Position numbers and translations under genes: made by a program
The notes under the pieces: generated by a model
What the model saw: only the letters and a program-made list of their open reading frames with translations
What the model was told of the DNA's origin: nothing
Databases searched by the model: none
Assembly (NCBI GenBank): GCA_037043015.1
Contig: CM073324.1
Coordinates: 10,189,013 to 10,253,012, forward strand
DNA: 64,000 nucleotides
Direction of reading: 5' to 3'
Origin: Bryum argenteum
Lineage: Eukaryota > Streptophyta > Bryopsida > Bryales > Bryaceae
In this document: positions 24,527-50,860 of the stretch, in pieces
Layout: each line of letters begins with the position of its first letter
How positions within the stretch are numbered: position 1 is the stretch's first letter

Positions 24527-24908
24527 TTTATAATATCAGTATATCTTCTTGCAATTCATAGACTCCTTTGGATGACCATCTCACGTCATTGAGTGCTCAT
24601 TTAGCCATGTAATTCACATTTCATACTTGCAATATATACAATCTACTTTTTGACATATTGTTCCAAATCTAATAGATTTTTGCAACTCTTATAATTATGT
24701 TCCCTTTTTTACACTAGTCACGTATGTATGTCACCACATTTTGTGTTACATGAGTTTCAAACCTCATGGTAGATGTTAGCCTTTCCTTCGTGGGTTTGTG
24801 GGTTGTTGTAATTTGTTTCATCTTGAATTCTTAATGCTTCATCTACGTTTAAAAACGTGAAAGGAAGAATTTTGGATAATGTGGGATAAAAAAATTTACT
24901 TATTCTAC
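24527..24908. other. AT-rich intergenic DNA downstream of the kinase
   Basis: No gene or motif recognised; may include the kinase 3' UTR. Confidence 0.5.
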
Positions 24909-25380
24909 TCGGGAAGCCTCCAATGCAAGGCCACTTAGGCGACCACCGGTCGAGGGGCTGAATAGGCGACCGCCGGGTCAGTGAGACCGCCCGGTCAGCC
25001 GAGACCGCGCGGTCCAATGAGACCGCCCGGTCCAGCCGAGACCGCCAGGTCCAGCCGAGACCGCCCGGTCGCCATGGGCGATCGTCGGTCGCTCATGAGC
25101 GATCGTCGGTCGACCATGGGCGTCGTCGATCGCTTGCCGCTCATGGGCGTCGTCGGTCGCTCATGGGCGTCGTCGGTCGACCCTGGCGTCGTCGGTCGCT
25201 AAAGCGACCGCCGGTCCAGTAAGTCGACCGCCCGGTCCGGCCAAGGCGACCGCCGGTCTAGATGACACGACCGCCGTCCGATCCCTACGTGGCGCGTGAT
25301 CGCGAACCGTATTCTTGAGCCGTACATGCCACGTGTGCGACCACGTAGGATGCAACGTGGGCGAGGTAAATCCGAGGTAA
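24909..25380. repeat. GC-rich iterated GACCGCCCGGTC-type DNA
   Basis: Short units such as GAGACCGCCCGGTCCAGCC and GGGCGTCGTCGGTCGCTCAT repeat many times. The style matches 3534-4060, suggesting LTR-derived DNA of the same gypsy group. It abuts the broken end of the outer MULE transposase. Confidence 0.6.
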
Positions 25381-25477: not shown

Positions 25478-26515
25478 CCTCACAGCAACACAAACGGGAG
25501 GTTCTTTGCAGATCTTACAGACCAGTGTTGAAGAAGGAGGAGGCGCGTGGCCGACTGGGAAGGGGTCCTTGGTAAAGCCCTCGAACTCCACCTCATTCAC
25601 TTGTGCTCTGCGGTCAGGTCGTAGCAGGAAGCCACACTTGTCATTGTGGCATTGAAGATGCCCTACACAGTTAGAGTAGCGGAAAGACAACCCGAGGTTG
25701 TTCCTGATGTTAGTAGTCATTGTCCTGGTCCACACATGACCGTCGTATCTCTTGTCCATACCTTCCATAGATTTGGCTACCTTGACAGCAGTAGTTGGTA
25801 GAACGGGAGGGAGAATGTAGATGACATCACCGTTGAAAGTGGGAGGCAGGAAAGAGACGCTGTGAGTACGAATGGAACGGAAATCAATTTTTTTGAGTAT
25901 AGTTTTGTTGCGAGACATACTACCTAGACTACGGAGTGAGGAAAGAATGTTTTTGGGTTTTATAACTTTGGGGTTAGGAAGAGAAGTGGGGGTGGTTCTG
26001 AGACTGTGTTCAGAACGAGAGGAGGGGGGAGAGAGATTTTATGATAGTCGACGGGACGGGATGGACGATTTCCTCTCATCATCGGATGAATCAGAAATAT
26101 CAATTCGGACTTCGAGTCCGGGTTCAACCTTGACACGAGCAAGAACTGGAACAACTGTGGAGATAGTAGAAGAACTACGAGGAGTGAGGAGGACAGTGGA
26201 AGCGTTCATTACGGACTCTGTCAATCCGAACAATCGATACTGTCCAGGCCGTAGCTTATACATTTTGCAATTGCTCTCTAGATCGACAGGTTCGACTAGG
26301 ACGGAGTACTGGACAAGATTAGTGTTTGGATCTAAGACATGTTTCTCTAACCAGAGAGACGACTCATCAAACCCGAATCGAATTGCTAGCCAAGACGGAG
26401 TAACTTCAGCCACTCCATCTACACCCGGAGGAATGCAGATTGGGGGACTTAAGTCTTCAGACCTAATGGCAATGACGTGTGCAGCGGGAGGCAGTGGAGC
26501 GGAGGATGCCATCAT
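25478..26515 (-). pseudogene. MULE transposase N-terminal fragment (outer element)
   Basis: Two blocks match the inner transposase. Block 26515-26039 contains AIRFGFDESSLWLEK, GQYRLFGLTES and DISDSSDDERKSS. Block 25918-25478 contains PPTFNGDVIYILPPVL, MDKRYDGHVWT, NCVGHLQCHNDKCGF and VCKICKEPPVCVA. Homology stops abruptly at about 25478, before the catalytic domain, where GTCTGTCTGAC repeats and GC-rich DNA begin. The start is the ATG pair at 26515/26512 (MASSAP, compare MASSSLE in the inner copy). A frame change lies between the blocks. This copy cannot make a working transposase. Confidence 0.75.
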
Positions 26516-29239: not shown

Positions 29240-29622
29240 CGATGACTTGCCGAGGACAGCCCCCCATATGAGTTTGTTTCCTCGTTTCGTTCCTGGTGAT
29301 TGCAATGCGAGGGAGTCAGATGCACCCCAAAGAAATGAGGGGTGTCGGCATCCCGGGGATGTTGTCCTCTAGCCTTGCTCCCCGGGTTTGATGCTGTCTT
29401 GGCTAACCTGCGGTACCGCTGGATTGACCCTATGGTGCATCTCATGTTTTTTTTTTGGTTCATGTGGTCCTCGTTTTGTTCGTGGTGATTGCAATGCAAT
29501 GGAGTATCTCGCGCCAAAGCATGAGGAGGGGTTGACATCCGGGGCCGAGCCCTCGAGGAGAGCCTTGCTCGTCGGGTTTCTTTGCTCTCTTGGCTAACTG
29601 CGGTACCGCAGATTGACCCTAA
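29240..29622. repeat. palindrome array of the outer element, left part
   Basis: Two units of a ~190-bp repeat with the phrases CTCTTGGCTAACCTGCGG and GGTACCGCNGGATTGACCC. Palindrome cores GCGGTACCGC lie at 29410-29419 and 29600-29609. The array continues on the far side of the inner element. Confidence 0.9.
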
Positions 29623-29631
29623 CGGGTGCAT
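29623..29631. repeat. target site duplication of the inner MULE, left
   Basis: CGGGTGCAT, identical to 43970-43978. A 9-bp duplication is the Mutator hallmark. Confidence 0.85.
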
Positions 29632-29900
29632 GGACGTTCGTGGCATGAGCGTTGAGCGGTGAGTGGCGGCGGTGGCGCTGAATTTCAAATTTTTAGCTAG
29701 GAAAAGTTATTAATAGTAAAATTACTAAAAATTTTAATAAAAATTTTAAAAACGAATATTTTCAAGAATATTTTCAAGATTCTCACCTATTACCGTGGAT
29801 CTGAGTACCTATAACCGTGGAATTTTTGGGCATATACTGTGGATTTTTGTGGTGAAGACACGTTGTTCACAACAAATTGAACCAAGTTTGATCACTTGGA
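29632..29900 (+). repeat. left terminal inverted-repeat region of inner MULE
   Basis: GAGCGTTGAGCGGTGAG iterons are followed by ATTACCGTGG and TTTTTGGGCATA. Similar phrases occur inverted at 43780-43969 and at 50640-50860. Confidence 0.7.
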
Positions 29901-30064
29901 CAATTCATCATATATCCAAAATTAGTGACGACTGTGACACGGAAAACATGGTATTCATATAAATATATTAATGTTTAGATATATCGTGTTACATAATGTT
30001 TATAGGTCTAGCCAATACGAAAAACTATAGAGAGTAAACTAGAAAATAAAGTGAATGGGGTGAA

Positions 30065-33000
30065 CTAAGAAGTAACGTGGTCTAGTACCCCCCTCTCGAG
30101 AATTGTCTTGACCTCGTTGAAACTAAGGGTAGCCGCATGCATGAAGAGATCCATTTCGACATCTAGTTTGCAGACTGACTCTAGAATAAAGTAGAGATGC
30201 TTGCAGTTTTTATACGGGTTCCCACATCTACCTAACTTAGCCATTGTCTCTTTGAATGCTGGGCAATTGCATTCCGGGAACGAGCTGATCGAGACTTGAT
30301 AGATCGACTCGGTCGGAGGCGGTTTAGAGACCGCAACGTAACCACACACCCAAAACCGGGTTCGGGGATCATAGTCACCTTCAAAATGGTTGCCTTCATC
30401 GCCTTGGCAGAGTATATGTTCTTCATTTGCTTCGACGAGGCTGTCGGACATGAGCGACGGATGGTCTTGGAGTTTCGCGTCTTCGGAAAAACATCTGCGT
30501 TATCCGGTACAGGAACATTGGACAAATCACGAGGTGGAGCACCATTCGTAAACGTTCGGTTTACAGGACACGCTCCTTTGAGGAAGTTGAAATCCGGCAT
30601 TCTTCAATGCATCAATTTCACCACGCGTGAGATTGGTCCCGATTTTCACCGCCAAACCAAAGGGATAGGCGGTCGTTCATCCGTCTCATTGAAGGGCTCA
30701 ATCCACCTACGACGAAATCCCTTCACGCACCTCTCAATATCATCTGCACAGAAGAAGAACTCTTGTACCACCTTGCGGGGAGCTTTACGAGGTGGTTCCA
30801 AACTCCGGTGTAAGTTGGAGTCAGGGGTGCTCCTCCCGTTTAGGACTATCCGGGCGGTACATTTCTTCCTAGTTACACCATCTGCCCCAACATGCTTTAG
30901 CGGAATGCTTACCGACACGGGCAATATGCCATAGCTTCTCGTTCACTCGAGTCTCTTGCACGGCACTAACGCCACAAATATCGACCCGAGCGGAGCTCAA
31001 AGGTTGAGCAGACTTTCCTCCACTTCATGTTCTTCACGAATTGTGCTCAAAGTATGAGCTCGTGCTCGAGTAACTCTAATGCCTACCTTAGGTCGGGAGA
31101 AGTTCACGATGTCCGGTCTATGAGTTTCTTCTTCAAAGACCAATGGGAACATCTCGCCTTCGTTTTCATGGAACCGAAAACCTCGGCTCCCTCGTGATGT
31201 GCATCACGAGTGCGAGAACTCTTCGGCTCCGGGCATCTCGAGGACCGCCTTGTTGAGGAGGAATGATCTCGGTCACGGTGCGCACGTCGTTGGGGCTGCT
31301 CAAGTCGGGTTCCTCCTCGACGGTCCGTAACCACCCGCTCCGCCTTTGAGGTACTGGTAAATAAGCCACCACTTGCAAGAAGGCTCGAATGTAATCGTCC
31401 ACGGCCGCAACGTCTGTGTCTCCACCTTTGTTGCCCGAAGCTTGAAGCCATTTGTTGTGTACGGACTCGGCAAGATTGCAAGATGGCATCTCCGCTAACT
31501 CCTCTTGAGTGTATTGTTTTTCCTACGTTCAAGAACATCAAGTTTTGGTCACAGAGGATGAGAAAAGTCACAAGACATTTGGGAGGTAGGGGGCTCCCTC
31601 GTACACGAGGGAGCCTCCTAAATATAGATTTTTTAAAAAAAATTAAAAAATTGAGTAAAAAAATTTACTTTTTACTGGAGTAGTAAAAGGCATAACTCAT
31701 AGAATCACGTAAGGTTGAACTTAATAGCTCCATAAACCCCCCCCATTGGCGATATCGAAAATGCCAGAATGCGAGCCAAAACCCCAAATGTCTCACTCCA
31801 TCCTCGAAAGCAGCGCGTGAAGACGTCCACCATGCTTTGATTCCCAAATAGCGTGTCTCAGCCTCTTCCATGGACGAGGCATTTTTATATTGAAGACACA
31901 AATGCTTGTGTTGGTCTTGTAGTTCATGGCGAATGTACTTTGCTTGGTGTGTTTCTCAAGCGGCCCGAGACCAATGGAAGAAGCACGTCCTCTCTTGTCC
32001 TTCCATGGGCACGGTAGGGTTGCCAGAACCGTATATGATCCGGACCGCATTCCAATTGGCTTGTGCACTATCAGCCATGAAACCTTGAAACTGAGGCTTA
32101 GGGACCCCATTTCTTGACATCACATGGTTCAGATTCTTCCAAAAAACAATTTGAGCTTCTCTATCCTCGGACATAAAATCACAACAAGCAATTGTAAGTA
32201 CTCGTTGGTAACTGGAGTCGTACACGTGGCACGCCATGGTCGTCCAGTGGATAACACGTTTGACGTGATCAAACATCATCCAAGCATGCTCTAGGTCACC
32301 ACCAAGTTGCATCCGCCGGACCAGGTCCACTCCACTAGCAGGGCCAACTTCTGACATCTTGAAAATGAAGACTTTGTCCAAGTCGTCTCCTTGCCCTGGA
32401 AACATGTTACGCTGAACAAAGGCCCAATTACTGAGCCCTCTGAGTTTGGTAATACCGTCCATGACTCCATAGCGCCTTAGATACCTGAACGTGTAGACAC
32501 GGTTTCTAATACTTGGAGAGTTTAGGTCTTTACAACTATCGAACACAGGCTCTAGTTGTTTCAAAGATAGGTGGGTATGAGGCTCGTCCTCTTGACGTAA
32601 AAGGTAGTTTCCTAGAAGGTCTCTGCTGGCCTCCATAACAATCTTAGAAACAGGAGCCTGTGGATTGCGTTCGACATGTTCTTCAATCAACTCGTCAATC
32701 TTGCTCCGTGTACCTCTGTAGTCCCCAACCTTGACAGGGTGGTCGTGATTGCCGATATGAACGCACGCACGCTCTTGGTTTTCATCACCAAAAATATAAT
32801 AGATCTTAGCTTTACAAGTGGCAACGCAAATAGGAGGTTCCTTACAAATCCTGCAGACGATCGTGGATGCGGAAGGAGGTGGTCCACCAACTCCGAATGG
32901 GTCTTTAGAGGATCCATCGAACTCAACTTCGTTCACCTCTGCACGCCGCGCTCGGTCTCGCAAGAATGGACAATTCTGATTGCGACACTGGACATGACCA

Positions 33001-33867
33001 ACACAATTAGAAGATCTGAAAGTCAAGCTCATGGTGTTGGAGATGTTAGTGGTCGTGGTTTTAGTCCATAAGTGTCCGTCGTAACGTTTATCCATTCCAT
33101 CCATGGATTTTGCATTTTTGTTAGCAGCAGATAGAAGAACGGGTGGAAGAATGAAGAGAATGTCACCATTGAAAGATGGTGGTAAACTAACTACACGGAT
33201 TTGTCTGGATGTTAGCATAATCTAGTTTCTTCAGCATCGTCTTGCTACTGGGCATACTACCTAACTTGAGGAGGCAGGCGAGAATGTTTTTGGGTTTTGA
33301 CGTTTGTGAGGAATGTTGTTGAGGGATAGGGGTAGACAATTGAGATGTAGTAGACGGGGATTGAAGCGGAAGAGGAGAACAATTACTTGGAACCGAAGTG
33401 TTGCGCTCGTCATCAGATGACTCGATAAGGTCTATGCTAACACATTCACATGGTTCGACCTTTATACGACGTAGAACGGGAGTGATCGTTGACGAGTAGA
33501 GAGAACTACGGGGGTCGATGGGGCGATTGAAGCGACCATTATAGATTCGACAATCCGTATAGGCGGTACTTGCCGGTATTAAGATCCCGACTTTGCTTCT
33601 CATTCACAAGCACTGGACTAGGTTCAACAACCATGGAATACATGACGTTCAAGGTGATAGGGTCTACAACGTCCTTCTCTAACCACAAAGACGACGAATC
33701 GAACCCGAATCTAATTGATAACACTTGAGCGCGATTCGAGAGCTACTCCTTGGGGGCTGGCTTTGGTATGCGTGAGGAACCGGAGAACCGGGAGAGAGAA
33801 TTTCGACAACGTTCGGACTAGTAAGCTCAAGACGAGGATGCCATGATGATAGAACGAGGTACGACAA
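30065..33867 (-). pseudogene. Mutator-like (MULE) transposase of the inner element
   Basis: It cuts and joins the element's ends. In order from the N-terminus: a variable region with RFGFDSSSLWLEK (about 33720); a conserved PPSFNGDILFILPPVLL / MDKRYDGHLWTKT block with Cys pairs (NCVGHVQCRNQNCPF, VCRICKEPPIC); the MULE DDE region (about 32260-31990) with CHVYDSSYQRVLTIACCD and GFMADSAQANWNAVRIIYG; and LAESVHNKWLQASGNKGG (about 31470). The C-terminal SWIM zinc finger has CNCPAF and NCKHLYF (about 30260-30190). Frame changes lie near 33730, 33545, 31950 and 30440, and a probable intron (about 31690-31500) holds a palindrome. The family call is strong; an intact protein is not present in this sequence. 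Confidence 0.85.
31592..31615. promoter_or_regulatory. palindromic site CCTCGT-NN-ACGAGG, left outlier
   Basis: The core CCTCGTACACGAGG (31597-31610) is extended to a near-perfect 24-bp palindrome. It is embedded in a ~45-bp context (A-rich tract, then TAGG..) that recurs in the opposite orientation at about 43600-43650, near the other end of the element. Confidence 0.7.
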
Positions 33868-33954
33868 TAGTAGAAAGGAGAATGGAAGTCTTTCTGCAGA
33901 GTATATGTATTTTGAATAGTTATTACCTCTAACCCTAGATTAGTATAAATAAAA

Positions 33955-34425
33955 CCATTTGTATACTCCACCTCCAAAGGCTGACAGAGTAAGTTTGAAA
34001 GTTTGCTACATGAAAAAAAGTAAGTCACATTGAGTTAGAAATAGCCTTATTTGGATTTTTGCAGATCACACAATGGTGTTATGTAAACGTGTAAAGGTGC
34101 GGCGGCCGTCATTGTCAGGTAGACGCGTAGATATTCTTAGTGCTTTAAGCGTAAGATAGAATTTAGAATCCTATGTTAAGCCATCCTATGTTAAGCCATT
34201 TGTATACTCCACCTGTAAAGGCTGACAGAGTAGGTTTAAAAGTTTGCTACATGACTAAAAGTAATTCACATTGAGTTAGAATTAGCCTTATTTGGTTTTT
34301 TGCAGATCAGACAATGGTGTTATGTAAACGTGTAAAGATGCGGCGACCGTCATTGTCAGGAAGACGCGTAGATATTCTTAGCGCTTTAAGCGTAAGATCG
34401 AATTTATAATCCTATGTTTAGCCGG
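33955..34425. repeat. tandem duplication of the divergent promoter, 241-bp period
   Basis: Two diverged copies start at CCATTTGTATACTCCACC (33955 and 34196). Each carries the conserved GGCGRCCGTCATTGTCAG motif and AGACGCGTAGATATTCTTAG. It lies between the transposase (minus) and gene A (plus), so it probably holds the promoters of both. Confidence 0.75.
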
Positions 34426-35099
34426 AAACATAGAGGATGTCAGATGTTCAAGATTGGAATGACGGGTGCGCCGGCTGTAGATCTATTTTATTATATTTTA
34501 AAATTGAATCTGAGTTCCGGGGACAAGGTATATAGTAAGAGTGGAGCAAGGATTCAAAATCATTTAATCTTGAGAGCTAAAGTAGTGGACATCTAGAGCT
34601 GTATTCTTGTTTTCTTGCGTGGTGTTCTCAGTTCTAGAGACTACATTAAGGACATAGTTGAAATACCGTAGAGTAGCGGACATTCAACAGAAACGGAAGA
34701 AGAAGAGAGGAGGTTTGAAGTTTAGTGGTTCTAAACAGCGCAGGCGGATGGCGTTGAGGAGGAAAGAGTCAATGTCTCAATCCAAATGCGATGGATCAAG
34801 AGAGGAGCGCGAACTTGAAGGGAATGCGGAGCGGCCGGAGCCAACCCCATTCCAACTGAGGTGTATTAGACGAGCCACTAACTTAGAGAGTGTTTCAGAG
34901 GTCGATGAGTATGAAAAAGTAGAGGAAGATTGCGAGAACACTATAGACGAGGTCTTCTCTACTGCTTCAAAGTATTGCACTTCCCAAAGTGATTCTCGCC
35001 ACGCCGAGAATGACGATGAAGACCAAGGAGTTGATTCGGATGAATTGGTAATTTTTCAATTGCACATTAACTTCTCTATTTGCCTAATCTAAGTACTTG

Positions 35100-35780
35100 G
35101 ATATTTGGATAAAAAAAAGTTGATACTTTCTTTCCACATCCTTGTAGATTGTATAAAATCAATTTTGTTAAGTAAATAGACCATATTCTCCATCTCCCTG
35201 TAGATAAACCCTTATGGTTGCTTCATAAAAATCATTTTATCTGAATCTCCATAAAGGTAAGAGTCACAAATCCAACAAACAAGATATGAATAATCTATAA
35301 TCTAGTGTATAAGTAGAGTGTAAAAGTAAACCGTTCCGCATTCTCTCAAAAAGCCGAATAAATGAGTATAAAAACGACCTTCATACTCTTTTGGTAGTTC
35401 ACAATCATTTAAACCAAAATTCTGTCCAATGATCACAGAGACATCGATGCATACTGATACATCCATAGACTAGATTATGTACTTCAGTTTACTACATCCA
35501 TAGACTACACTAAATTTGATAATTAGTGTTAGATTATTATAAGATTTGAAAATGCTATAAGTTTTTACTTTTGTTTCTAAAAATTTACCAAGATCATTGA
35601 TTCTGATACTATTTAAGGACCCCCATCTTGGCCAATATAGTGGGTAAAATTATTGAACAACGATAAAAACTTATAACGTGTTTATGTAAATTAGTGAATC
35701 TAACACTAATTACCAAACTTAGTGTAGTGACTGGGGAGATGTCTCATCCACCTTGCGGGGCACCATCTAAGATGACATTC
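35100..35780. other. intron DNA of inner gene A, nothing recognised
   Basis: AT-rich, no open frame, no repeats. Confidence 0.5.
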
Positions 35781-35837
35781 ATTCATTGGTGTGCACTTGT
35801 TGGCAATCCCCTCCAGAATGAAATTAGCTGAATCCCA

Positions 35838-36255
35838 ATACCATGCTCGATACTATGGCCGATACCATGCCAGATACGATGGTCCATACCATGGGCGATA
35901 CCATGCCCGATACCCTGCCAGATACGATGGTCCATACCATGGGCGATACCATGCCCGATACCCTGCCAGATACCAGGCTCAATACCATGCCAGGGCCATC
36001 GCGCGAGTCTGCAGGGCCATCGCGCGAGTCTGCAGGGCCATCGCGCCAGTCTGCAAGGCCATCGCGCCAGTCTCCAGGGCCATCGCGCCAGTCTGCAGGG
36101 CCATCGCGCCGAGTCTTCAGGGCCATCGCGCCTTGTCTTCAGGGCCATCGCGCCAGTCTCCAGGGCCATCGCGCCGAGTCTTCAGGGCCATCGCGCCGAG
36201 TCTCCAGGGCCATTGCGCCGAGTCATGGGCCATCCGCAGGGCCATCGCGCCGTTT
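35838..36255. repeat. two minisatellites: GATACCATGCC type and AGGGCCATCGCGCC type
   Basis: 35838-35990 consists of units such as GATACCATGCCCGATACCCT and GATGGTCCATACCATGGGC. 35990-36255 has about twelve units of ~21 bp with the core AGGGCCATCGCGCC. Long open frames on both strands here are repeat artefacts. Confidence 0.9.
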
Positions 36256-36895
36256 TTTTTCTATGTTGTTTTGTGAAGCGAGGAGTTTTTTTCTCTTCCG
36301 TTCCAAGTTATCCTCACAGAAATGGTTGGGCAGATTGGAGGAGAGATTCACGTTGGAGAAGGAACCCGAGTCGGAGGGGAGATGACGATGTTGGAGCGCG
36401 GAAGGGAGGGTGCAGACGTCGACGTGGTGAGCATTCAGACAGAGGATTCGTTTTGGGAGCATCTAAGAACTTGTGGGAAAAGTTTTCCCATTTCGATAGA
36501 GGTAGGAAGGGAGAGTTTCGTCGCCGAATTGGAGACTGAGACAGACACACAAGAAGAGGTAAGATCGACCTGTTCAAACTCTAAACCATTCTGATGAGCC
36601 TAAACCCTCATTAACTGCTCTTCGTGATAATGCTCGTCGTGGTCCTGTTCAATCCGAAGGCTCCCTCGTGTATGAGAATGTTCTCAGTTCTAGGTCCGAA
36701 GGCTCCCTCCCACCACCTCAAATATCTTCAATCTAGCCTGCTCTTCCTAGATTCGTAAGCGTAGTGTGATGAATCGCAGAACGAGTCATATGCACGCCCG
36801 GCGTACGATCGCTCTGATGGTGGCTCGTATCCCATCGCTCGTATCCCATCGCTCGTATCCCATAGCCGGAGTCTCGCGTTGTCTGGCCTGTTCCG

Positions 36896-37300
36896 TGAGC
36901 AGGTCTTACCTTGCGAGCAGCTTCGGCGGCGCGTTCAGTGCAGGTGGGCTCGGGCTCTGGTGCGCCCCAGACGTGGCATCGTAAGCTCGCGCTTTCGTCA
37001 TCAGATGGCTCCCTCGTGTACGAGGAAGTGTAGGGATTCAGTGGCCAGGGCCGGATCGTGTTGATCCAGCCGTTCCGGATCCTCATGCTCGTGATGCTCG
37101 TGAGCAGGTCTTACCTTGCGAGCAGCTTCGGCGGCGCGTTCAGTGCAGGTGAGCCCGGGCTCTGGTGCGCCCCAGACGGTGGCATCGTAAGCTCGCGCTT
37201 CTGTGTCCGAAGGCTCCCTCGTGTACGAGGAAGTGTAGGGATTCAGTGGCCAGGGCCGGATCGTGTTGATCCAGCCGTTCCGGATCCTCATTCTCGTGAT
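36896..37300. repeat. direct duplication of ~200 bp in gene A intron
   Basis: The phrase GAGCAGGTCTTACCTTGCGA through CAGCCGTTCCGGATCCTCAT occurs at about 36897-37085 and 37102-37292. Each copy includes one CCTCGTGTACGAGG palindrome. Short ATGCTCGTG repeats follow (37290-37395). Confidence 0.85.
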
Positions 37301-38392
37301 GCTCATGCTCGTGATACTCGTGATGCTGTCATCCTCAGCCGTTCCGGATCCTCATGCTCGTGATGCTCATGCTCGTGATGCTGTCATCCTCATGTTCGAG
37401 TAGGTTTGTGAGCGGTGTGTGAGGTTTGTGAGTGCGGTGTGTGAGTGCGGGGGTGCCCTCGTGTACGAGGATGGCACCGGGATTCATTGTCCAGGGCCGG
37501 ATCCTCATGCTCGTGACGTTCGGGAGTCATGGCGGCCTCTGGCTCTGTTGGGTCTGGTGATGGCCGCGTTCTGGTTGGTGGTTCAAAAAATTGTGATTTT
37601 GGTGGTTCAAAATAAAAACCCAGAATTCATGAACTTGTACCTGTACCCTCGTACACGAGGGAGTGTTCAATGCTGGACACCGTCTGGACATATGTGGTAG
37701 TTTTGTCTGATCCATTCATGCTGACGGTATGAGGATTTCAAGCGAATCGGGTACTGGTATTCGTGATGCTGTTCATCTCTTTGATCTTGTTACGCAGACA
37801 TTAGAGTGGTCAAACCAAGGATTGGTCAAGTACACTTGAGAGCTGAAGTAGGGTGGTTCAACCAGTGTGACCTCGTATACGAGGTTGTAGTAATGGGAGT
37901 CATATTTGCTACTATGTTGTCTTCATAATGCTCTCAAAATCTATAATCTTCTAAGTTTAGATAATTCTTTTAATTCATTATGATTAAATTGACCATTCTT
38001 GCAAATTATTGTAGTTTTTTGTGAATTCAAGTTGTTTCCTCGTTTACGAGGTAAGGTACGCATTAAAATGTTTCTCTATTGAACCGATTTTTTGATTATA
38101 ATACGTTTATGAAGAAGGATAGCAAATACAGTTTTGATGGGTGCCTCGTGTACGAGGTTGGGTAAAGAATTCGGTTCTTGATCGTATTTTTGTCTATTCT
38201 TTTTATTACACTTTGGGCATGGGCATTGGGCTTAAGCACTCTCCACTTGTGGTAGGTATCCTCGTATACGAGGGTGAGATCGAATCTTAACCAGTTAGAT
38301 CAAAAGTTTGTGAATGTTGATAATCATTTTAAATATATGGGCTTTGGAATTGGGCATCACTTCATTTGTGGTAGGTATCCTCGTATACGAGA
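37012..38392. promoter_or_regulatory. cluster of nine CCTCGT-NN-ACGAGG palindromes
   Basis: Exact half-sites lie at 37012-37025, 37217-37230, 37457-37470, 37647-37660, 37871-37884, 38038-38051, 38144-38157 and 38260-38273; one with a single mismatch is at 38379-38392. A weaker copy is at 36664-36677. The two central bases vary (GT, AC, AT, TT) while the 6-bp arms stay fixed, as expected for a dimer-binding site. The cluster fills the intron before the last exon of inner gene A. Further sites lie at 31597 and 43631. Confidence 0.85.
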
Positions 38393-38557
38393 GTAGGTGT
38401 ATACAAGAGAAAATTTCAGCCAACTTTGATCATTATAATCTCACAACTGAAGAATAATCAACGGTTCATATTTGAGATGTGATTAGAATGTCTAATTCAA
38501 TTTGCCAATGTGCACTCGTGATTGTGACTAAACCGCTATATTTGTTTTTGTGTGCAG

Positions 38558-38883
38558 GAGTTCTCTGGGATAGCATGGAGCATGTCATTGAGTCGACAAT
38601 CGATAGTAGTGATTTTGATGGAATGAGTCACGGTGTTCAAAATTGGATTGGAGACCGTACCGTTGTCTTAGGTTTACCTGCCACGATCGTTCCCATGGCT
38701 GAGCCCTCTAATGGGGATTCTTTTCCCCGTTCCAATGTTGTATCATCCAATATTGTTGACAAGGAGGCTCATGCTCTATACATGAGAGAATGGCGACGTC
38801 ATACACGTGAGAAGAGACTAGAAGCTCGAGATGCGGCCCGTTTAGCCCCTAGACGGTCTCCTAGGCTAGCAACTTTTACTTAA
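38558..38883 (+). CDS. inner gene A, last exon (basic tail RRSPRLA)
   Basis: Begins after the acceptor TGTGCAG and ends in TAA. It encodes an acidic-to-neutral stretch and then MREWRRHTREKRLEARDAAR and the terminal RRSPRLATFT. The outer counterpart ends ISPRRSPRLAAKLKSK. The shared SPRRSPRLA-like end is the most conserved part of gene A. To keep the reading frame with the previous exon, one base must be gained or lost, so either the exon border is off by one or there is an indel. Confidence 0.5.
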
Positions 38884-39058
38884 CTTGATTCATGATTTGA
38901 CTCTCCACATTGTATTGTCTTTGACAATACAATGATTTATATTTTGTATTATCCATGGATGATAGTTTATTAATCATCATATTTTTACTGATATATATCT
39001 ATTGACATTTGTTGTTTGCATAAGTTTAATTTAGTGTTTTACCCTTTCAATTATCCAG

Positions 39059-42000
39059 CTAAGAGATGGCGATGACGATAATGAGAATGGCGAGCATACT
39101 CCCTTGAGTATTCCGGAGACCCAACCCATGGAAGAGGATCGCAGTCTGCCGAACGTCCCGACACCATCCACTGGACAAGACATCCCCCCGCGCCATCACG
39201 TAGGTGACATTGAGAATGGGGACGGGCCCGCGCTTACTCCGGATGAAGGGGCCCAAGCAGTGCTTCCTAGTGAGCATCTTGCTATTGTGCACGCAACGCA
39301 CGCCCTTGGGCTTGCTTCACCGGAGAGAGAGCAACAAATGGAGGGCCCGTCATCTCTTTCCGAGGATTCCGATGATGATGAGACCGCTAAACATCCTTCA
39401 CATCTCAAGGATAAGGATATGAAGTTTAGCGAGCACGAGATTCGAGTTTGCACCACGACGGACTCCGTTAAGGCCATCAAAGGGATTCTCAACAAACCGG
39501 AAGATAAGTCCCGGTTTCGAATTCCTTTATGTCGCCTTCAATCTTACCCGAAGGTTAGACCTGTTCTTGAAGCCGACGTGCAGAGGCTTCAAAACGAGTT
39601 TGCCCGAGGTTATAGGGAGGGTGATCGCGTCATGTACGTCTCGTTATATGACGAGGATAGTCGGGATCTTCTTGTTTCCCCGGAGATTGTCAGCACTTGG
39701 GATGAACATTGGGTGAATGAAAATAGACGATTCGAGGACGACCTGTCTCGTGACGTCCACCTCCATCAATTTCAAGGCAAAATGTTTTTTGTCTATCAAG
39801 GGAATCATCGTTTGGCTGCATGGATGCGAGAAATTGCAGAGTTTCACCAAGAAGATCCTTTTTGGCACATTCGGGTTGACTGCATCGTGCTTGATGCACG
39901 GGGAAGGAATGGCGTTCTCGTCAATGCCATGGCTGACGTCAATTGGTAAGTTGGTTGTCTTCCATGAAGTTCGATTTACATTTTTTTTCATTAACCTTAA
40001 CTTCTTACATCCTCATGCATATGGTTTGAATTGTAGGTCGACCGAGAACGACTTCGTGAAGAGTAGTCTTCCAGCGAAGTTACAACGAATTCGGACGTTC
40101 GGATCCATGAAACTTGAGGCTTTCAGGGACTTGATTTCGGAAGAGGCATATGTTTTTTGCCAAAAAGAGAAATCAAGGCGTACCACTTGGTATTCTCTCG
40201 GCGATTGACGTTACGTATTCGTAGCATTCTTGTTCAAGGTAATAATTTTAAGTATTGATCTTCCAAATACTGCTTATGACTATTGTCAAATGTTATGTAA
40301 TTTGTACTGTGTGATTTTCGTAATTCACAGAGAGAGGTTTCTCGGGCTCAAGACCTTGTTGCAAAGATTTACAAGGAGACCATTTGCTAAAGAGAAGCAA
40401 ACCGGACACGGGTGTGGTTGGCTATGCATCATGCGCAATGAAGACCATCAAGATCTTAAAGGGTCGAAATTTTGAGAAATTTATCGCAGATGGCTAATCC
40501 ACAAAATGGCCCCAAGTTCTTCGACGAGGTACGTATAATATATTATTGCTTTCTATTTGATTACCCGTAATATGATAATTGACGTGAGTTATGTCTTAAT
40601 CAGATTACTACACATTACTCGACTTTTCCAGTACCCGAGTTGTCAATTGAGCGACTTCAAAAGATTGCTACATCTCATGTTGAGCCGGAATTCAAGGCAA
40701 AGTGGTCATCTTGGTGGAATAGCACGGATAATGAAAGACGACTTGTGTGTTTTCCCTTGGATCGTCCAATGAAAGAGAAAACCTTTGACGCCTGGATTCA
40801 GAAGGCTTCTTTTTGGGTACAAGTATGCATGCTCTCTGATCAAACTTATATTTTGGGTTGTTCGAATCTCTGAAACTATACCATGCTTTAATTCTCATTT
40901 ACGTGATTCACAATCGTTTTTGCAGTTGGAGTTCGAGCTCGTACAAGAGTTCAATAAGATCCTCGAAAATCACGCTATGCCTATTGTGTGGAAAGAGGAC
41001 GTTCTCCCTCCATCCGCTTACGTAGAGCATTGGAGGGTGCGCCTTTGGGATCACGCGTACCTTGCATATCTCGCACCAACAGCAGGCCCAAAGTTTGTCA
41101 AAGGAACCGATTTGAAGAAGTTCGAGAATGGCACGTTGATCATCAAACTCTTGGTCTATAGGTATTTTATGCTCCCCGCTTACTTATTTATTTGCTTTCT
41201 ACTTGGTAATAATTGGTTTTCTTAACCATTTTGTTTTTCAGGTACTTTACCCGCGAGTTGATGACCAAAGGTGCTCTTCGTTTGTCTTCTCTTCCCGAGT
41301 TTCTGAAGGATGCTCGTGATAAAGACTCCAAGCATAACGCATTCACTCCTCGCCAGTACGAGAGGTTCTCAACAGTAGCCCTCAAGACTGGAGCTTGGTT
41401 TTTGGACTGCTCAGCCCCGTTCGTTCCTACGGAGGAGCAAGATCTTGCAGTGTCAATGGGCGTCGTCTCTGCACCTCAAGCTCGTATCGACATTGAAGAC
41501 GACAATGATGCAGGAGACTTTAGTCGACGATATGCCTAACCGAGCTCCTAAAGTTGGGAAGAAACGTGCTCAAGTGCCAGCAAGATCACGACCTGCAACC
41601 ATGAACGCATCAATGTCTCTAGGTGGTCCTTCGTCACAAGCTGAATCTGGTCCTTCCCTTACCCAGGCAAGTGAACGTCTTGGTGACGTTGATGGCTTGC
41701 CATCCCACGCCACAAAATTCAATCGGCTTGTTCGCGGTCGCGATGTGGTGCGTCCTGACTTACCTGAGAAAGTATCTGCTAACGTATCACCCTTGCCCAT
41801 ATTCCTCGAGCACGGAGACATGGGTGAGGTTTTGAACTTGAGCGACACTAATTCCCGCATGGAACCTCAGGCTGTACGCATTATGCAGCATATTCGTAAG
41901 GTAAACCCATATTCTCATAATTTCATATTGTTTTCAATGTCCCTCTTTAATCGTGGTGATTTTATGACACTAATAATTGTTATACTTTATTGTCCAGGTT

Positions 42001-43305
42001 GGGAAAGGTCGTGATAAGCCCATTCAAAACATGACTATGAAGCCCAAACATCCCGGCATTGACCTAATCATCGCTGATGCACCTGAAAACCTTACGGTGC
42101 CTCTCATCGAACCACACGTTGTACCCATGTGGAACATGCGAGATGACGATTATTTCGATAACGTGTTCGCATTTGCTGATGCGAATCTAACGGATGATGG
42201 GGTTATACTTCTCATGCACCCAAGGGATAGGGTCATTGAACGAGTTTGGACGAGTGCGCGTATAGTTACCGATTCAAGATTGTTCGTGATCGGTGGGGTT
42301 ATAACCCACTTCGTTTGACGTCCGCTATTGTACTCGGGCGAACGGTAAATCTCTGACGTTTATATTTCTATATTGTTTTCTCCGTTCAATTTGATAGATT
42401 GTAATGTGGTTTTCTAATCGCCCGATTGGATTGTGTAGACTCAGAACTTCCACATCAAGGTCTTTGCAAGAAAGGATGCAAAGTTTGAAATAAAGAGATC
42501 GAATGGTCTATGGGGGCAGCTCGACATTCTCCCGGACGACAATGACAACTTAACCAACTTCACCCACGCCAAAGACCAGATGTTACGCCCCGATGGGAAA
42601 CCGTGGTGGGGCGCTCGGGAGAAGCATCCAGATTTCATCCAGTGTTTTATCGAGTGCTTGACCGACGAGAACGACATCGTGTTTGATTGGAGTGTTTCTA
42701 CAGGTATGTGGTTTATGTCAAGATTGAGGATAAATGTGATCAAGTGATTTATACTAACACTTCCTCGAATTGTTTTTGTACAGGAGCTTCTGTTATCGCA
42801 TGCAAACGAACGAATCATTTTCTCATCGGCTTGGAGCGAGATGAGGAAATCTTCGAGACAGTCTTGAAACCGATGTTAGAGCAATCGCAAAGTCGGCTTG
42901 ATGCAAGCTCATCCAGAGATCTTACAGAGGATGTGGAGCCTAGGAGGAAGAAACCTCGCAAGTACATGGGTGCGTTATATCTGCTCTTTGTATTTTAACT
43001 TTTTATGACGCTTTTGTCAACGGGAATTTCTAAACTTCACTTTGGAATCTAGTCACGCAGGATTGACTCGAAGATTATCACTCCATTCGGATCTCATTCG
43101 GAGTCCTCCATCGCCATTTGCGCTTCCCTCGTATGCTGAGCGACTTGCCGAGCAGTGGGTGGCAGCTCCATCTCCTATTCGTGCTCAAGCCCAGCGACCA
43201 AAGTTTCCTCAGAGTGTATTGCGCTTCATAGATTTTGAAGCTGACCAATGTGATGAAGAATTTGACTCGCCCCACGATAGCGACCATTCTCTTGATTACT
43301 ATTGA
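39059..43305 (+). pseudogene. inner gene B: ParB-like domain fused to DNA methyltransferase-like domain, ten exons
   Basis: Exons: 39059-39945, 40037-40238, 40330-40528, 40604-40822, 40926-41161, 41242-41900, 41998-42344, 42439-42703, 42784-42969, 43053-43305 (about 1,150 codons). Exon 1 has an acidic leader and then a ParB/sulfiredoxin-like domain: FRIPLCRLQSYPKVRP, GYREGDRVMYVS, YQGNHRLAAW (GNHR at 39800-39811) and IRVDCIVLDARG. Exons 4-6 form a middle domain I do not recognise. Exons 7-9 are methyltransferase-like in circular order: DAPEN at 42076-42090 (motif IV place), ADANLTDDGVILLMHP, and then VFDWSVSTGASVIAC / LIGLERDEEIFE, the FxGxG SAM-binding place. Exon 10 has LPSYAERLAEQW and DFEADQCDEEF. 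Defects: TGA at 40206, several frame changes in exon 3, one near 41525 and one near 42255. Confidence 0.75.
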
Positions 43306-43379
43306 ACTTAGCCTCCCTATAGCTTTTGGCAACAATATTCGATATTTTTGAATTCGTATGTTTTCAACTCATTTATGAG

Positions 43380-43625
43380 TTACTATTACTTATTTATACA
43401 TCTTGGCGTATTGGTTATATATTAAACCGTTTTAATTCTAATTACCATGTCTAAACCGCTCTAATATTTTTTTGATCACGCCAATTCAAATATGTTGTTT
43501 GAGTGAGAATCGGTGTATATAAAACTCAGATTGTATTAAGAATGTTTATGAGGTAATTGGAATTTTGAAACCATAATATGTAAATCGAACAATTTTTTTC
43601 TTAAAAAAAAAAATCTATTTTTAGG
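43380..43625. other. AT-rich subterminal DNA of inner MULE, nothing recognised
   Basis: No gene; ends in an A-rich tract before the palindrome at 43631. Confidence 0.5.
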
Positions 43626-43630
43626 GGTTC

Positions 43631-43644
43631 CCTCGTGTACGAGG
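43631..43644. promoter_or_regulatory. palindromic site CCTCGTGTACGAGG, right outlier
   Basis: Lies 325 bp from the right end of the inner element. The surrounding ~45 bp (A-tract, ATCTATTTTTAGGGGTTC, then GAAGCCCCCTAC) mirrors the context of the left outlier at 31597, in inverted orientation. Confidence 0.75.
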
Positions 43645-43779
43645 AAGCCCCCTACTTCTGACAATTATGTCACCTTCTCTCGCCCTTCACGACTTTTGCT
43701 TGAGCGAGAGAAACCCTAAACCACCTAAACCCCTAAAGTGATGACGTCTGTGATGACGTCAGCCCTAACCTATTGTATA

Positions 43780-43969
43780 GTGTACCCAAAAACCTAAACA
43801 AATGTGATTTAAGTCCACGGGTTTGGGAGCATTTACTTCTAAACCCTATACCAATATTTCAGTTTTATTTACCCTAAACCGTGGTAATAGGATACTTAAT
43901 ATTCGTAAACTCAGGGGGATTTTTTGGAAATTTTCTCACCGCTCACCGCTCACGCCTGTGCATTCCCCG
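43780..43969 (-). repeat. right terminal inverted-repeat region of inner MULE
   Basis: CTCACCGCTCACCGCTCACG iterons at 43935-43956 and CCGTGGTAATAGGATA further in. Inverted relative to the left end. Confidence 0.7.
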
Positions 43970-43978
43970 CGGGTGCAT
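43970..43978. repeat. target site duplication of the inner MULE, right
   Basis: CGGGTGCAT, identical to 29623-29631. Confidence 0.85.
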
Positions 43979-44790
43979 CTCATGTTTTTTTTTGGTTCAT
44001 GTGGTCCTCGTTTTGTTCGTGGTGATTGCAATGCAATGGAGCTCTCTACGCCCAGCAGCATGAGGGGTTGACATCCGGGATAGAGCCCTCGAGGGAGTGC
44101 CTTGCTCGTCGGGTTTGATGCTCTCTTGGCTAACCTGCGGTACTGCGGGATTGACCCCAGTAGCGTGAGGGTGCTGGCATCCAGGACAGAGCCCACGAAG
44201 GAGTGCCTTGCTATTCGGGATTGAAGCTCTCTTGGCTAACCTGCGGTACCGCGGGATTGACCCCTGGGTGCATCTCATGTTTTTTTTCTTATAAGTTTGA
44301 TTGCTGGGTTCGTTTGTGGTGATTGGGATGCGAGTAGCTGTGTACCTCCAGCAGCGTGAGGGTGTCGGCATCCGGGACAGAGCCCTCGAGGGAGAGCCTT
44401 GCTCGTCGGGTTTGCTGCTCTCTTGGCTAACCTGCGGTACCGCAGGATTGACCCCAGTAGCGTGAGGGTGCCGGCATCCAGGACAGGGCCCACGAAGGAG
44501 TGCCTTGCTATTCGGGATTGAAGCTCTCTTGGCTAACCTGCGGTACCGCGGGATTGACCTCTCTCAGCATCTTATGCCTTTCTTTTGTTCATGTGGTCCT
44601 GGTTTCGTTCGTGGTAATTGGAATGCGAGGGAGCTGTGTATTCGCAAGAGGGTGAGGGTGTCGGCATCCGGGACGGAGCCCTCGAGGGAGTGCCTTGCTC
44701 GTCGGGTTTGATGCTGTCTTGGCTAACGTGCGGTACCGCGGGATTGACCCCTGCGTGGATCTCATCTGTTTTTTTTATGAGTTTGATTCA
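43979..44790. repeat. palindrome array of the outer element, right part
   Basis: Five units with spacings alternating near 190 and 106 bp. Each has CTCTTGGCTAACCTGCGG and a palindrome: 44137-44146 (one mismatch), 44243-44252, 44434-44443 (extended to the perfect 16-mer CCTGCGGTACCGCAGG at 44431-44446), 44540-44549 and 44730-44739. Units also contain GAGCCCTCGAGGGAG, a second palindrome. Confidence 0.9.
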
Positions 44791-45208: not shown

Positions 45209-45523
45209 GTCCCCTTGAAAGTTAATGTTGTCCCTGAGAAGGAATCTGATGCCAACAGCGACTTATCGGCTATGAAAGCTCATGTTATGGCTGTAGTACA
45301 GTCTCGCCGTTTAGTAGTAGCCTTGACCTCCATTCCCGAAACTCCGCCTCCTGCCTCTCCTGTCCGTTACACTTCAAGTGTATACGTTGATCGGGTCGTA
45401 CGAGCGGTTAACATGCGAATTAAAAGGAATGAGGCCAAAGCTATACGTATTCAAGCGATAGCATTAGCTAGAATTTCACCACGTCGCTCACCACGACTTG
45501 CAGCAAAGTTAAAATCTAAATAG
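45209..45523 (+). CDS. outer gene A, last exon (basic tail RRSPRLA)
   Basis: Starts after the acceptor GTGCAG in phase 0, matching the phase of the exon at 28981-29202, and ends in TAG. It encodes VRYTSSVYVDRVVRAVNMRI, a Lys/Arg/Ala-rich helix-like part and the terminal ISPRRSPRLAAKLKSK. Homologous to the inner exon at 38558-38883. Confidence 0.55.
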   Translation, partial: VPLKVNVVPEKESDANSDLSAMKAHVMAVVQSRRLVVALTSIPETPPPASPVRYTSSVYVDRVVRAVNMRIKRNEAKAIRIQAIALARISPRRSPRLAAKLKSK

Positions 45524-45654
45524 TTTTTGATAACATTACTTCAGACATATATGGTTTCTCTTCTGAATGCTTATATATTTGAATATATATTCATTAATTT
45601 GGTTTATTCTTATTATTGTGGTGCGGTGTTTTATTTTTTTACTTGACTTATCAG

Positions 45655-48600
45655 ATGACAATATCAGAGATAGAATCTCTTGAAGACAAAGAAGATACCA
45701 CACCCGCTGCAAACTTCCAATCAACTCCTGCTCCGCTTGAAGATGATAGCAGATCCGTCCTACAAGAAGATGTGGAAGGCATGTCTCCTGCAGTGCCACG
45801 CAGTAGTCCTATCCAAACCGATTCTCCTCCAAGGAGTAAGCAAGATCTCGGTGAACACGAATCCCTTTCGGGGCGACGAAGAATCTCCTTTGCACCTGGA
45901 GTGTCAACGTTGGCATAGTTCACATGCCCCCTCATCTCCAAAACAAAGACCCCGGGCCGAGTGCAAACGAGATGCGAATGATACACAAAAGCGATTCCAT
46001 TGCAATCATAAACAGTTCCGTTTCAAACTCAGTGAAGAAGTCTCGTCTACTTATTCCGCTGTGTCGATTGGTGTGTTACCCAAAGGTTCGACCTATTTCG
46101 GAGCAAGACGTCAGGAAACTTGAAAACGAGTTCAACAAAGGTTACCGAGAAGGTGATAGGGTAATGTACGTTTCTCCATTCGATAGGAAAGGAAGAGAAA
46201 AAATAGTAGATGCTCGAGATGGTGTGTGGGAGAATCCGCTATGGAAAGATGTAAATGAAGAGTTCGAGAGGACTTTGAAGTCGGATCCTGATCTTCATCA
46301 TCTTAGTGGCAAATACTTCTATGTATACGAAGGAAACCACCGTGTGACGGCATGGAAGCGTCACATTGAAAAATACCACCAGATGGATCCAACATGGTAC
46401 ATCTCGGTTGATTGCATCGTACTGGATGCTCGCGGACAAAGCAATCTTCTTCTTGACGCTATGAATGACATAAACTGGTAAGTACTTCAAACATCTTCTT
46501 CATTTATTTTATTTCTAATCATTGTCATCTGGACGTTCTCTCATATCTATTTCCGCTGTACAGGTCTACAGAACATGAGCATGTCGAAGACAGTTTATGT
46601 GCAAAGCTGCAACGCATGAGGAAATTCGGTAAGTTGAAACTTAAAGATTTCAAGGATCTTATTACTCCGGAAGATTACCAAATCTGCAAAAACGCTAAAG
46701 CAAAAAAAGAAACATGGTATCCTGTCACACTAGACGTCTTCGTCAAGTTCTTATATGCGGTAAGTCTTCTTCATACCTACTAAACATTGCTATCATTTAC
46801 TCATGTCATTACAATTTCTGAATACTACTTTTGTGCCATGTAGAGGAGGTTAGCGAAAGCATCAGATAATGCCGAAGCAACTTATTACGCCACTACCCCT
46901 AAAGAAAAACAAACGGGGCCAGGAGTTTGGAGTGCCATGGATAACGCCATCAAAGCGGAAATCAAATCTATTCGTGGCAAACAGTTTAACAAGATGGTTG
47001 TTGTGGCCAATAATCAGCTTGGGAAAGTTTTCCCGAAAGAGGTATATAATTCAAGCTTAATTTCGAATGATACTCAATACTGTTATTGGTTAATTCTGAA
47101 ATTTACTACGTCTACTTGTTCTACGTGCAGATCTATTCTCACTACAGCGAAAACTTGAAACCCGACATGACAATCGAACGGCTGCACATGGTTGCTACCA
47201 CCAATGTCCATTTCGATTTTAAGGGAAAGTGGCTGCAATGGTGGAATGCGCCGGATGATGTTCGCCGATCTGTCCACTTCCCAGTAGAGCGCCCTATGAA
47301 GGATAAAGCATTGCTTGCATTCTTGCATCGCGCTTCTCTCTGGGCTCAGGTATATTGTACTTAAGTTCTGTCATTATTGTACTTCCGTCATCGACTGACT
47401 ACTAATTCTAACGATTTCTTCCTTATTGCAGTTACAACAATCCCTCGAAAGTCAAATACAACAACTTCTGGAGGATGGCAAAATCCACATCCAGTGGTCG
47501 GATGCGGTATTAATGCCATCCGCGTATGTTGAGAAATGGAGATTGCTTCTATGGGATAAGGCCTTTGGCAACTACCTCGCTCAAAATGCCAGCCCGAAGT
47601 TCATAAAAGGATCCGATATTCAGAAGATTAGTGGTGGCAAGGTTACAATTAAACGGCTCTTATTCCGGTACGTTTTCATTTAGCTTTTCATCTTTGAACT
47701 CCATTTGCGGAGTTCAAAAATCATCCAGGACAGTATAATACATTTTCTCATTCTAATATATTTTATTGACTGTAGGTACTTGAAACAAGAGCTTCTTAGC
47801 AAAGGAGCTTTGGCTTCGTAGTCCATTCCACCTGAACTCGAGGATGTAACCGTCTCAAATGATCCATCCAGCATCTTCTCCGAAGCCCAACAGACACGGT
47901 TTTCCAACTCACAGTTGCTGACCGGTGGTTGGTTCCTAGAGTGCAACGATAACTTTGTGCACAAGGAAGAGAGACATCTGCTTCGCAACCTCACTTCAAA
48001 CGCACCAGGCAATGCAGCTATGGAGATCGATGACGATGACGACGAAGGCGTCTCCATTTTACCAAGCGCGCCCGTGTCACCCTCCGAACCTCCTTCACCG
48101 ATTGCACATCCTAGAACCCGAGCAAACAGGAAGCGACGCATCGCTGCCGCGGAGCCTATCGTTGATCTTGATCAAGAACCCGATGAATCCGGTCCGCTCC
48201 ATCAAGACGTTGCGAGTCCCGTAAGAAGGCGATTTGACTCGGGCTTGGATGGAGCGACCAACAATGCAAGTAGACGCGCTCGACCATTGACTCAGATTTC
48301 TGTAGGCGCTCTTACGAATGCGGGGTCCCCTCCTCAATCTTTTACTGTCGACCACAGCTCCGGAAAGAAGTTTGCTTCACTCCCATTTCTTGAACCGAAG
48401 CATGTTGGAGAGTGCTTGTCTTCTGATATTACTATTTCTCTCCCAATGTACTTGGAAAAAGGGGATATCGGAGCTTCTGTTCAAAAGGCAGCTCACGAAA
48501 CAAAAGATTGGGACACGCAAGTCATGGACATCATTAACCACATCAGAAAGGTATTATATCTTAGATCTCTTATTACATTCTCTTATTTCTGAAATTCTGT

Positions 48601-50640: not shown

Positions 50641-50860
50641 AACTGTTGTAGGACCCCAATACCATGTAAGGAAGTGCATAAAGAACCTATATCCACGGTT
50701 TTGGGTATTTTATGCCCAAAAATAACCATTTTAAAATTTCAGAACCACCGTTTCCATGGTAATAGGGCCATTAACTTTTAGATTTATTTTTCTTACCGCT
50801 CAAACTTTACTGCTCACCGCTCACCGCTCAACGCTCAACGCTCACACCAGTGGTTTCCCC
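50640..50860 (-). repeat. right terminal region of the outer MULE
   Basis: Iterated CCGCTCACCGCTCAACGCTC (50793-50846), preceded by CCATGGTAATAGGGCC and ATGCCCAAAAATAACC. These phrases match both ends of the inner element. The element ends at ...TTTCCCC (50860), inside the C-terminal integrase region of a gypsy element. Confidence 0.75.

What the first reader, a model, noticed from the sequence alone, without database searches (positions are those of the whole stretch)
29632..43969. A Mutator-like transposon that carries a ParB-domain/DNA-methyltransferase fusion gene
Seen: a MULE transposase (DDE region and SWIM finger), heptamer-iterated ends and an exact 9-bp target duplication bound a 14.3-kb unit. 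The largest gene in it joins a GNHR-type ParB-like domain to a methyltransferase-like domain in the circular motif order (IV then I). Known: ParB-methyltransferase fusions are a phage and bacterial mobile-element theme, and MULEs usually carry only a transposase or captured host fragments. I know of no described plant MULE with this cargo. Inference: the element brings its own DNA-marking or partition-like system, perhaps to protect, silence-proof or maintain itself.
Basis: partly seen in the sequence, partly recalled or inferred. Interest (0 to 1): 0.95.

Follow-up and report, generated by a model that had tools for sequence, protein, structure and literature searches.

The report
Plant jumping gene with ParB–methyltransferase fusion
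A 14-kb plant jumping gene, one of at least two related families in this genome, carries a gene that joins a ParB-type domain to a worn-down DNA-methyltransferase domain, next to clustered palindromes that differ between families, which suggests a self-recognition system that may help it escape silencing.

Summary
The unit is real: 29632-43969, 9-bp target duplication, heptamer-rich ends, ten-exon gene B. Gene B fuses a ParB-type fold (AlphaFold model pLDDT 85; best PDB neighbours ParB, Noc, sulfiredoxin; GxxR motif as GNHR) to a permuted N6/N4 DNA-methyltransferase-type domain (Pfam, best E 6e-6). The catalytic tetrad DPPY is replaced in 15 of 15 rows read, so methylation is doubtful. Gene B travels with the transposase: 28 of 33 listed family-1 copies have it upstream, divergently oriented, within 32 kb. 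A second family, about 50% identical in protein, has at least 150 copies and is under purifying selection; the element here sits inside such a copy. New: a 14-bp palindrome (CCTCGTRTACGAGG) is clustered between the genes, and 78 of 79 listed sites on one chromosome lie by family-1 copies; family 2 has a different iterated palindrome (CTGCGGTACCGCAG) in the same place. This works like the VANC/target-repeat anti-silencing system of VANDAL elements, with an unrelated protein. Best reading: a family-specific self-recognition module, probably anti-silencing. All 15 complete family-1 gene-B copies read, this one included, are broken as assembled. Weak points: no Pfam MULE match, no binding or methylation data, host (probably a moss) unnamed.

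The parts
29623..29631 (.). left 9-bp target duplication CGGGTGCAT (outside the element)
   Evidence: other copies show other 9-bp duplications
29632..43969 (.). transposon, family 1, inserted into a family-2 element
43970..43978 (.). right 9-bp target duplication CGGGTGCAT
30065..33221 (-). transposase gene, open pieces 33221-31956, 31955-31665, 31522-31166, 30942-30646, 30499-30065 (the last with a SWIM-like finger); provisional Mutator-like
   Evidence: 34 places (window included) at 94-100% covering 94% or more of a 1001-base query, where 40 of 651 candidates were scored; no Pfam MULE match; SWIM E 0.061
34658..35045 (+). possible first exon of gene C (no known domain), weak match to family 2
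   Evidence: (tblastn E 0.032)
38566..38883 (+). last exon of gene C, ends ...RRSPRLATFT; 36% identical exon in family 2 (45254-45502)
36664..38392 (.). cluster of 10 palindrome sites (consensus CCTCGTRTACGAGG) between transposase and gene B: 36664, 37012, 37217, 37457, 37647, 37871, 38038, 38144, 38260, 38379
   Evidence: 12 positions in the window at 2 mismatches or fewer, all inside the element; 23 strand matches against 0.34 expected
31597..31610 (.). palindrome site within the transposase gene
43631..43644 (.). palindrome site 3' of gene B
   Evidence: unchanged in 16 of 16 alignable copies
39062..39945 (+). gene B exon 1: ParB-type domain (about 39500-39945), GNHR motif
40037..41900 (+). 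gene B exons 2-6 (40037-40238, 40331-40528, 40604-40822, 40926-41161, 41242-41900): middle region; no function assigned
41998..42969 (+). gene B exons 7-9 (41998-42344, 42439-42703, 42784-42969): permuted N6/N4 methyltransferase-type domain, motif IV DAPE, motif I DWSVSTG
43061..43305 (+). gene B exon 10, C-terminal tail
25484..25879 (-). family-2 element (host of the insertion): transposase N-terminal exon
29408..44741 (.). family-2 palindrome sites (consensus CTGCGGTACCGCAG) at 29408, 29598, 44135, 44241, 44432, 44538, 44728; the family-1 element sits between the second and the third
45254..49955 (+). family-2 gene C last exon (45254-45523) and gene B exons (45927-46477 to 49723-49955)

Best explanation
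A provisional Mutator-like DNA transposon carries a transposase (minus strand) and, divergently, genes C and B. Gene B makes a protein of roughly 1,100 residues with an N-terminal ParB/sulfiredoxin-type nucleotide-binding fold and a C-terminal domain descended from a permuted N6/N4 DNA methyltransferase that has probably lost catalysis. Shown: the parts, their joint mobility, selection on gene B in family 2, and clustered 14-bp palindromes that differ between the two families and lie next to gene B. Inferred: the gene B protein (or a complex of B and C) recognises the palindromes of its own family, assembles over the noncoding region between the genes, and keeps that region transcribable by excluding or reversing the host's silencing marks, in cis and in trans on sister copies. 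This is the logic of VANC and its target repeats in VANDAL elements, done with a different protein. The methyltransferase-derived domain would serve as a DNA- or methyl-group-sensing module, not as a writer; the ParB-type domain would supply nucleotide-controlled loading or dimerisation.
Against: No binding, expression or methylation data. It is not shown that B, rather than C or the transposase, binds the palindromes; no helix-turn-helix or other DNA-binding domain turned up in the Pfam scan of the whole family-2 protein. Within family 1 the palindromes are only modestly more conserved than their flanks (47 of 1504 against 318 of 6426 substituted cells; without the atypical site 38038 it is 21 of 1232), and their CpGs decay about as fast as other intergenic CpGs (19 of 215 against 33 of 314). 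All 14 complete family-1 copies examined, and this one, have stops or frameshifts in the projected splice model. Two diverged relatives, L049 and L050, show no palindrome array in what was fetched, and L054 has only one or two sites. Only two clearly different palindromes were found, so co-divergence of protein and site rests on two families.
Confidence: 0.45

Rival explanations
1. The palindromes are regulatory or transposase-binding sites, and gene B is an accessory transposition factor (target choice, end pairing, copy control) with no part in silencing.
For: Palindromes lie between the divergent genes and also at 31597 and 43631; the N-terminal exon of the transposase has a FLYWCH-like finger (recalled motif, no call); gene B and transposase co-move.
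Against: The termini carry a different motif (GTGAGCG heptamers) that the two families share (for family 2 only the right end was seen), so end recognition does not need the palindromes; the palindromes differ between families while the ends stay alike.
Confidence: 0.25
2. Gene B is an active DNA amino-methyltransferase (6mA or 4mC) that marks the element's own copies.
For: PF01555-type domain; palindromic sites are typical targets of such enzymes (general knowledge); the domain is under purifying selection in family 2.
Against: 0 of 15 rows keep a proline at position 2 or an aromatic residue at position 4 of (D/N)PP(Y/F/W); 8 of 8 rows have DWS where DPF is usual.
Confidence: 0.12
3. Passenger cargo: a gene of phage or bacterial type caught once and carried without function.
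For: Broken in the 15 complete family-1 copies read; ParB-methyltransferase fusions are enriched in phages (PMC12704722, passages).
Against: dN/dS of 0.05-0.14 in family 2, retained exon structure at about 50% protein identity, and 152 relatives in public sequence sets, mostly unnamed, one from a moss.
Confidence: 0.08
4. Partition-like maintenance: gene B acts as in ParABS, on an extrachromosomal form of the element.
For: ParB-type fold and clustered palindromes resemble ParB plus parS.
Against: No ParA was recognised, but only gene B and pieces of gene C and the transposase were scanned; the copies are chromosomal insertions with target duplications; no HTH found.
Confidence: 0.04

Closest known systems
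VANDAL elements and VANC anti-silencing proteins (Arabidopsis; PMC5735166 abstract and Results, PMC10398659 abstract)
   Same: Mutator-like transposon with a transposase and further genes; short family-specific motif iterated in tandem repeats of noncoding regions; motifs diverge between related families.
   Different: VANC has DUF1985/DUF287 (PMC5735166), which a Pfam scan of family-2 gene B did not report; motifs there are 8-9 bp; here 14-bp CpG-containing palindromes; function not tested here.
ParB-CTPase-fold/N6_N4 methyltransferase fusions of phages (PMC12704722, passages)
   Same: Same two domain types in one protein; GxxR P motif; viral neighbours in the fold search include a DNA methylase of Mycobacterium phage Vincenzo.
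   Different: Here in a spliced gene of a plant transposon, with a long middle region and a degenerate methyltransferase motif IV.
Fungal DNA transposons carrying TET/JBP dioxygenases (PMC12730594, abstract)
   Same: DNA transposons that carry a DNA-modification-type gene, proposed to help escape silencing.
   Different: Different enzyme class, hosts and transposase groups.
Bacterial ParB with parS
   Same: ParB-type fold; clustered palindromes of 14 bp (parS length recalled as about 16).
   Different: No HTH or ParA recognised; integrated element.

Membership tests
Mutator-like elements (MULE) | 8-11-bp target duplication | tested here: met
   9 bp in 6 of 7 copies with both termini readable
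Mutator-like elements (MULE) | MULE-type DDE transposase recognised by profile | tested here: inconclusive
   0 Pfam families for the joined transposase pieces at E up to 10; none of 72 PF10551 matches in the genome lies in the window; D...CxxH pattern seen by eye only
Mutator-like elements (MULE) | SWIM finger (common, not universal) | tested here: inconclusive
   PF04434 E 0.061, 13.3 bits against a cut-off of 19.6
KDZ transposons | KDZ transposase domain | tested here: inconclusive
   no Pfam family for the joined transposase pieces at E up to 10; the genome-wide PF18758 search (accession recalled) did not complete
VANDAL/VANC | VANC protein domains DUF1985/DUF287 | tested here: not met
   family-2 gene B from residue PPHLQ to its end (1074 residues) matches only PF01555 at E up to 10. 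Not filed as VANDAL
VANDAL/VANC | family-specific motif iterated in noncoding regions (works-like criterion) | tested here: met
VANDAL/VANC | sequence-specific loss of DNA methylation caused by the encoded protein | not testable with these tools
   no methylation data
ParB-CTPase fold | fold | tested here: met
ParB-CTPase fold | P motif GxxR | tested here: met
   GNHR; G136 and R139 at 90% or more in 113 sequences; definition from PMC12704722; residue-level superposition not done
ParB-CTPase fold | NTP binding | not testable with these tools
   needs protein
canonical ParB | helix-turn-helix and parS binding | tested here: inconclusive
   no HTH match in the Pfam scan of the family-2 protein; middle region not modelled; binding not testable
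N6/N4 DNA methyltransferase (PF01555) | profile match in permuted motif order | tested here: met
   4 of 4 rows of A1, best E 6e-6; 2 of 19 rows of A5, whose other rows are mostly exon fragments or carry unspliced introns; whole family-2 protein E 0.0062. Scores shown lie below the curated cut-off
N6/N4 DNA methyltransferase (PF01555) | catalytic (D/N)PP(Y/F/W) | tested here: not met
   0 of 15 rows. Descent from the family is supported, activity is not

The most novel reading that the evidence does not exclude
A plant nuclear transposon lineage has turned a phage-type ParB-methyltransferase fusion into a eukaryotic counterpart of ParB and parS: a nucleotide-switched DNA clamp that loads at family-specific palindromic iterons and spreads over the element, shutting out the silencing machinery, with protein and iteron co-diverging between families.
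Probability: 0.2. Interest if true: 0.95.

Novelty: new variant of a known kind. Interest (0 to 1): 0.8.

Why it matters
If right, sequence-specific self-recognition against silencing arose independently of VANC, from parts of bacterial-virus type, probably in an early-diverging land plant lineage. It offers matched protein and site pairs (two families in one genome) for testing how transposons out-evolve silencing, and would show a ParB-type switch at work in eukaryotic nuclei. Even without the mechanism, a plant DNA transposon with a ParB-methyltransferase fusion was not found in print in the searches made here (open-licence PMC papers only, listings read).

Tried and rejected
Single-exon Pfam scans gave nothing useful. 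A protein-database search with the long read-through of copy L012 found nothing at E up to 1; profiles of the separate domains did find relatives (152 and 21 proteins at E up to 10; one named, from the moss Ceratodon purpureus). The first AlphaFold job with 12 close sequences was useless (pLDDT 41.6) and was not searched. PDB profile search for the ParB part found no ParB, and Pfam gave no ParB family for 113 members (DUF6551 in 5, DUF1015 in 3, best E 0.028-0.048); PHROGs gave one weak ParB match (E 0.047); the fold search decided. NCBIfam gave one weak methyltransferase match (E 0.021). Selection on the palindromes within family 1 was tested and is weak. A third family with its own palindrome was looked for in L049 and L050 without success. 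Active methylation, ParABS partition and passenger cargo were considered and ranked low for the reasons given under rivals.
Full report
OBSERVATION. The unit at 29632-43969 is a transposon insertion. The 9-bp word CGGGTGCAT flanks it, a nearby repeat unit shows the site without insertion, and of 7 copies with both termini readable 6 have 9-bp duplications, each of another sequence (L022 has none; the other fetched copies could not be judged). The ends share iterated GTGAGCG/CGCTCAC heptamers. The window lies in a 258.8-Mb genome of 25 contigs.

GENES. Gene B has ten exons with GT-AG borders. A second, diverged copy downstream matches all exons by tblastn at E 1e-3 or better except exon 3 and the second half of exon 6, which I placed by frame and splice sites. 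A further gene C ends in an exon with RRSPRLA in both families; its upstream exons are weakly supported, and the pieces scanned match no Pfam family. The transposase runs the other way. It has no Pfam MULE match and a sub-threshold SWIM match. I keep Mutator-like as provisional.

COPIES. Family 1: 33 places of at least 650 bases at 93-100% for exon 1 and 38 places at 94-100% for the transposase exon, 34 of them nearly complete; both searches scored 40 candidates, of 82 and 651. 28 of the 33 gene-B places have a divergent transposase upstream within 32 kb, 21 of them within 12 kb, and no pair within 32 kb had another arrangement (33 of 42 gene-B rows and 38 of 40 transposase rows used). Of 20 copies fetched for the gene-B half, 14 are complete, and all 14 plus the window copy carry stops or frameshifts under the projected splice model. 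Assembly errors in methylated repeats could add to this; I could not test it. Family 2: 150 exon-1 places scored of 1201 candidates, 80-100% identical in protein, 124 without in-frame stops; 150 transposase places scored of 883 candidates. 67 of the 150 gene-B places have a listed divergent transposase upstream within 35 kb, against a mean of 2.1 for random positions; 14 pairs had other arrangements. dN/dS is 0.061-0.137 for exon 1 in 9 of 10 pairs (the tenth pair is nearly identical, 0.52) and 0.049-0.094 for exons 7-9 in 6 of 6 pairs. In family 1 it is 0.21-0.36 in 11 of 15 pairs, 0.66 in one and above 1 in the three pairs within one young subgroup, as expected for decaying copies. The family-1 element of the window is inserted in a family-2 element, between that element's transposase exon (25484-25879) and its gene B.

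PALINDROMES. CCTCGTRTACGAGG occurs at 12 positions in the window at 2 mismatches or fewer, all in the element: ten between the genes, one in the transposase gene and one 3' of gene B (23 strand matches against 0.34 expected). Genome-wide there are 192 and 196 exact matches on the two strands against 1 and 0 for the reversed control. Only the first 100 rows are listed, all on contig C1; of their 79 positions, 78 lie within 12 kb of a family-1 gene B or transposase, a region of 1% of the contig. All 20 gene-B halves have 4-10 sites. Two of the window sites lie in a 205-bp tandem duplication, but over 192 sites in 21 copies the core is kept while most flanking positions vary. Family 2 has a different palindrome in the same place: CTGCGGTACCGCAG and variants, in irregular repeat units, 150 exact matches against 0. 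Of 57 listed positions 47 lie within 6 kb upstream of a listed gene-B exon; of the 10 others, 6 lie within 10 kb of a listed family-2 transposase exon (read off). A variant forms arrays beside gene-B copies, one of 15 kb. Three of four fetched family-2 upstream regions have eight sites or more each; the fourth, interrupted by another element end, has one or two. Both palindromes have two CpGs four bases apart (CG-N4-CG). Against strong selection within family 1: substitutions in palindromes 47 of 1504 cells, flanks 318 of 6426; CpG decay 19 of 215 against 33 of 314. Without the atypical site 38038 the first figure is 21 of 1232, but that choice was made after seeing the data.

MECHANISM. The layout (transposase, further genes, family-specific iterated motif in noncoding DNA) is that of VANDAL elements, where VANC binds the motifs and removes silencing marks (PMC5735166, abstract and Results; PMC10398659, abstract). 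Gene B shows no VANC domains. I therefore propose that gene B is a self-recognition and probably anti-silencing factor built from a ParB-type switch and an inactivated methyltransferase. Recognition of the palindromes by B is inference; so are anti-silencing and loss of catalysis.

LITERATURE. ParB-fold/PF01555 fusions are known as phage-enriched (PMC12704722, passages read; words beginning with plant, transpos or moss do not occur in its main text). A survey of MULEs lists SET, OTU, PMD and DUF cargo in a table, and the words methyltransferase and ParB do not occur in its main text (PMC6446971, passages). Fungal transposons with TET/JBP genes are a parallel (PMC12730594, abstract). No paper describing this fusion in a plant transposon turned up in the listings, which cover open-licence PMC papers only.

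CHECK. 

Noticed in passing
24900-25300: GC-rich tandem repeats with GACCGCC/GGTCG units beside the truncated end of the family-2 transposase.
   Followed up: no
35504-35728: 32-bp inverted repeats (94%) 161 bp apart inside the element, possibly a small nested MITE.
   Followed up: no
35826-36252: Two further short tandem arrays (12-bp and 21-22-bp units) between transposase and gene B of family 1, and a 241-bp tandem duplication at 33952-34423.
   Followed up: no
38501-38504: 12 of 20 fetched family-1 copies carry about 555 bp here that the window copy lacks, just upstream of the last exon of gene C.
   Followed up: partly
50780-50870: Right end of the family-2 element with heptamers, ending ...GGTTTCCCC, like the family-1 end ...GCATTCCCC.
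   Followed up: partly
24000-24520: Open frame that looks like a protein-kinase tail (HNDLSPSN...DWG...WVAPE); reading by eye only.
   Followed up: no
L030 and L054: Other cases in which elements of these families lie inside or against each other (family-2 exons in L030, another element's end in the array of L054), suggesting nesting.
   Followed up: partly
G000:C3:13002906-13017911: A 15-kb array with dozens of the family-2 variant palindrome upstream of a gene-B copy.
   Followed up: no
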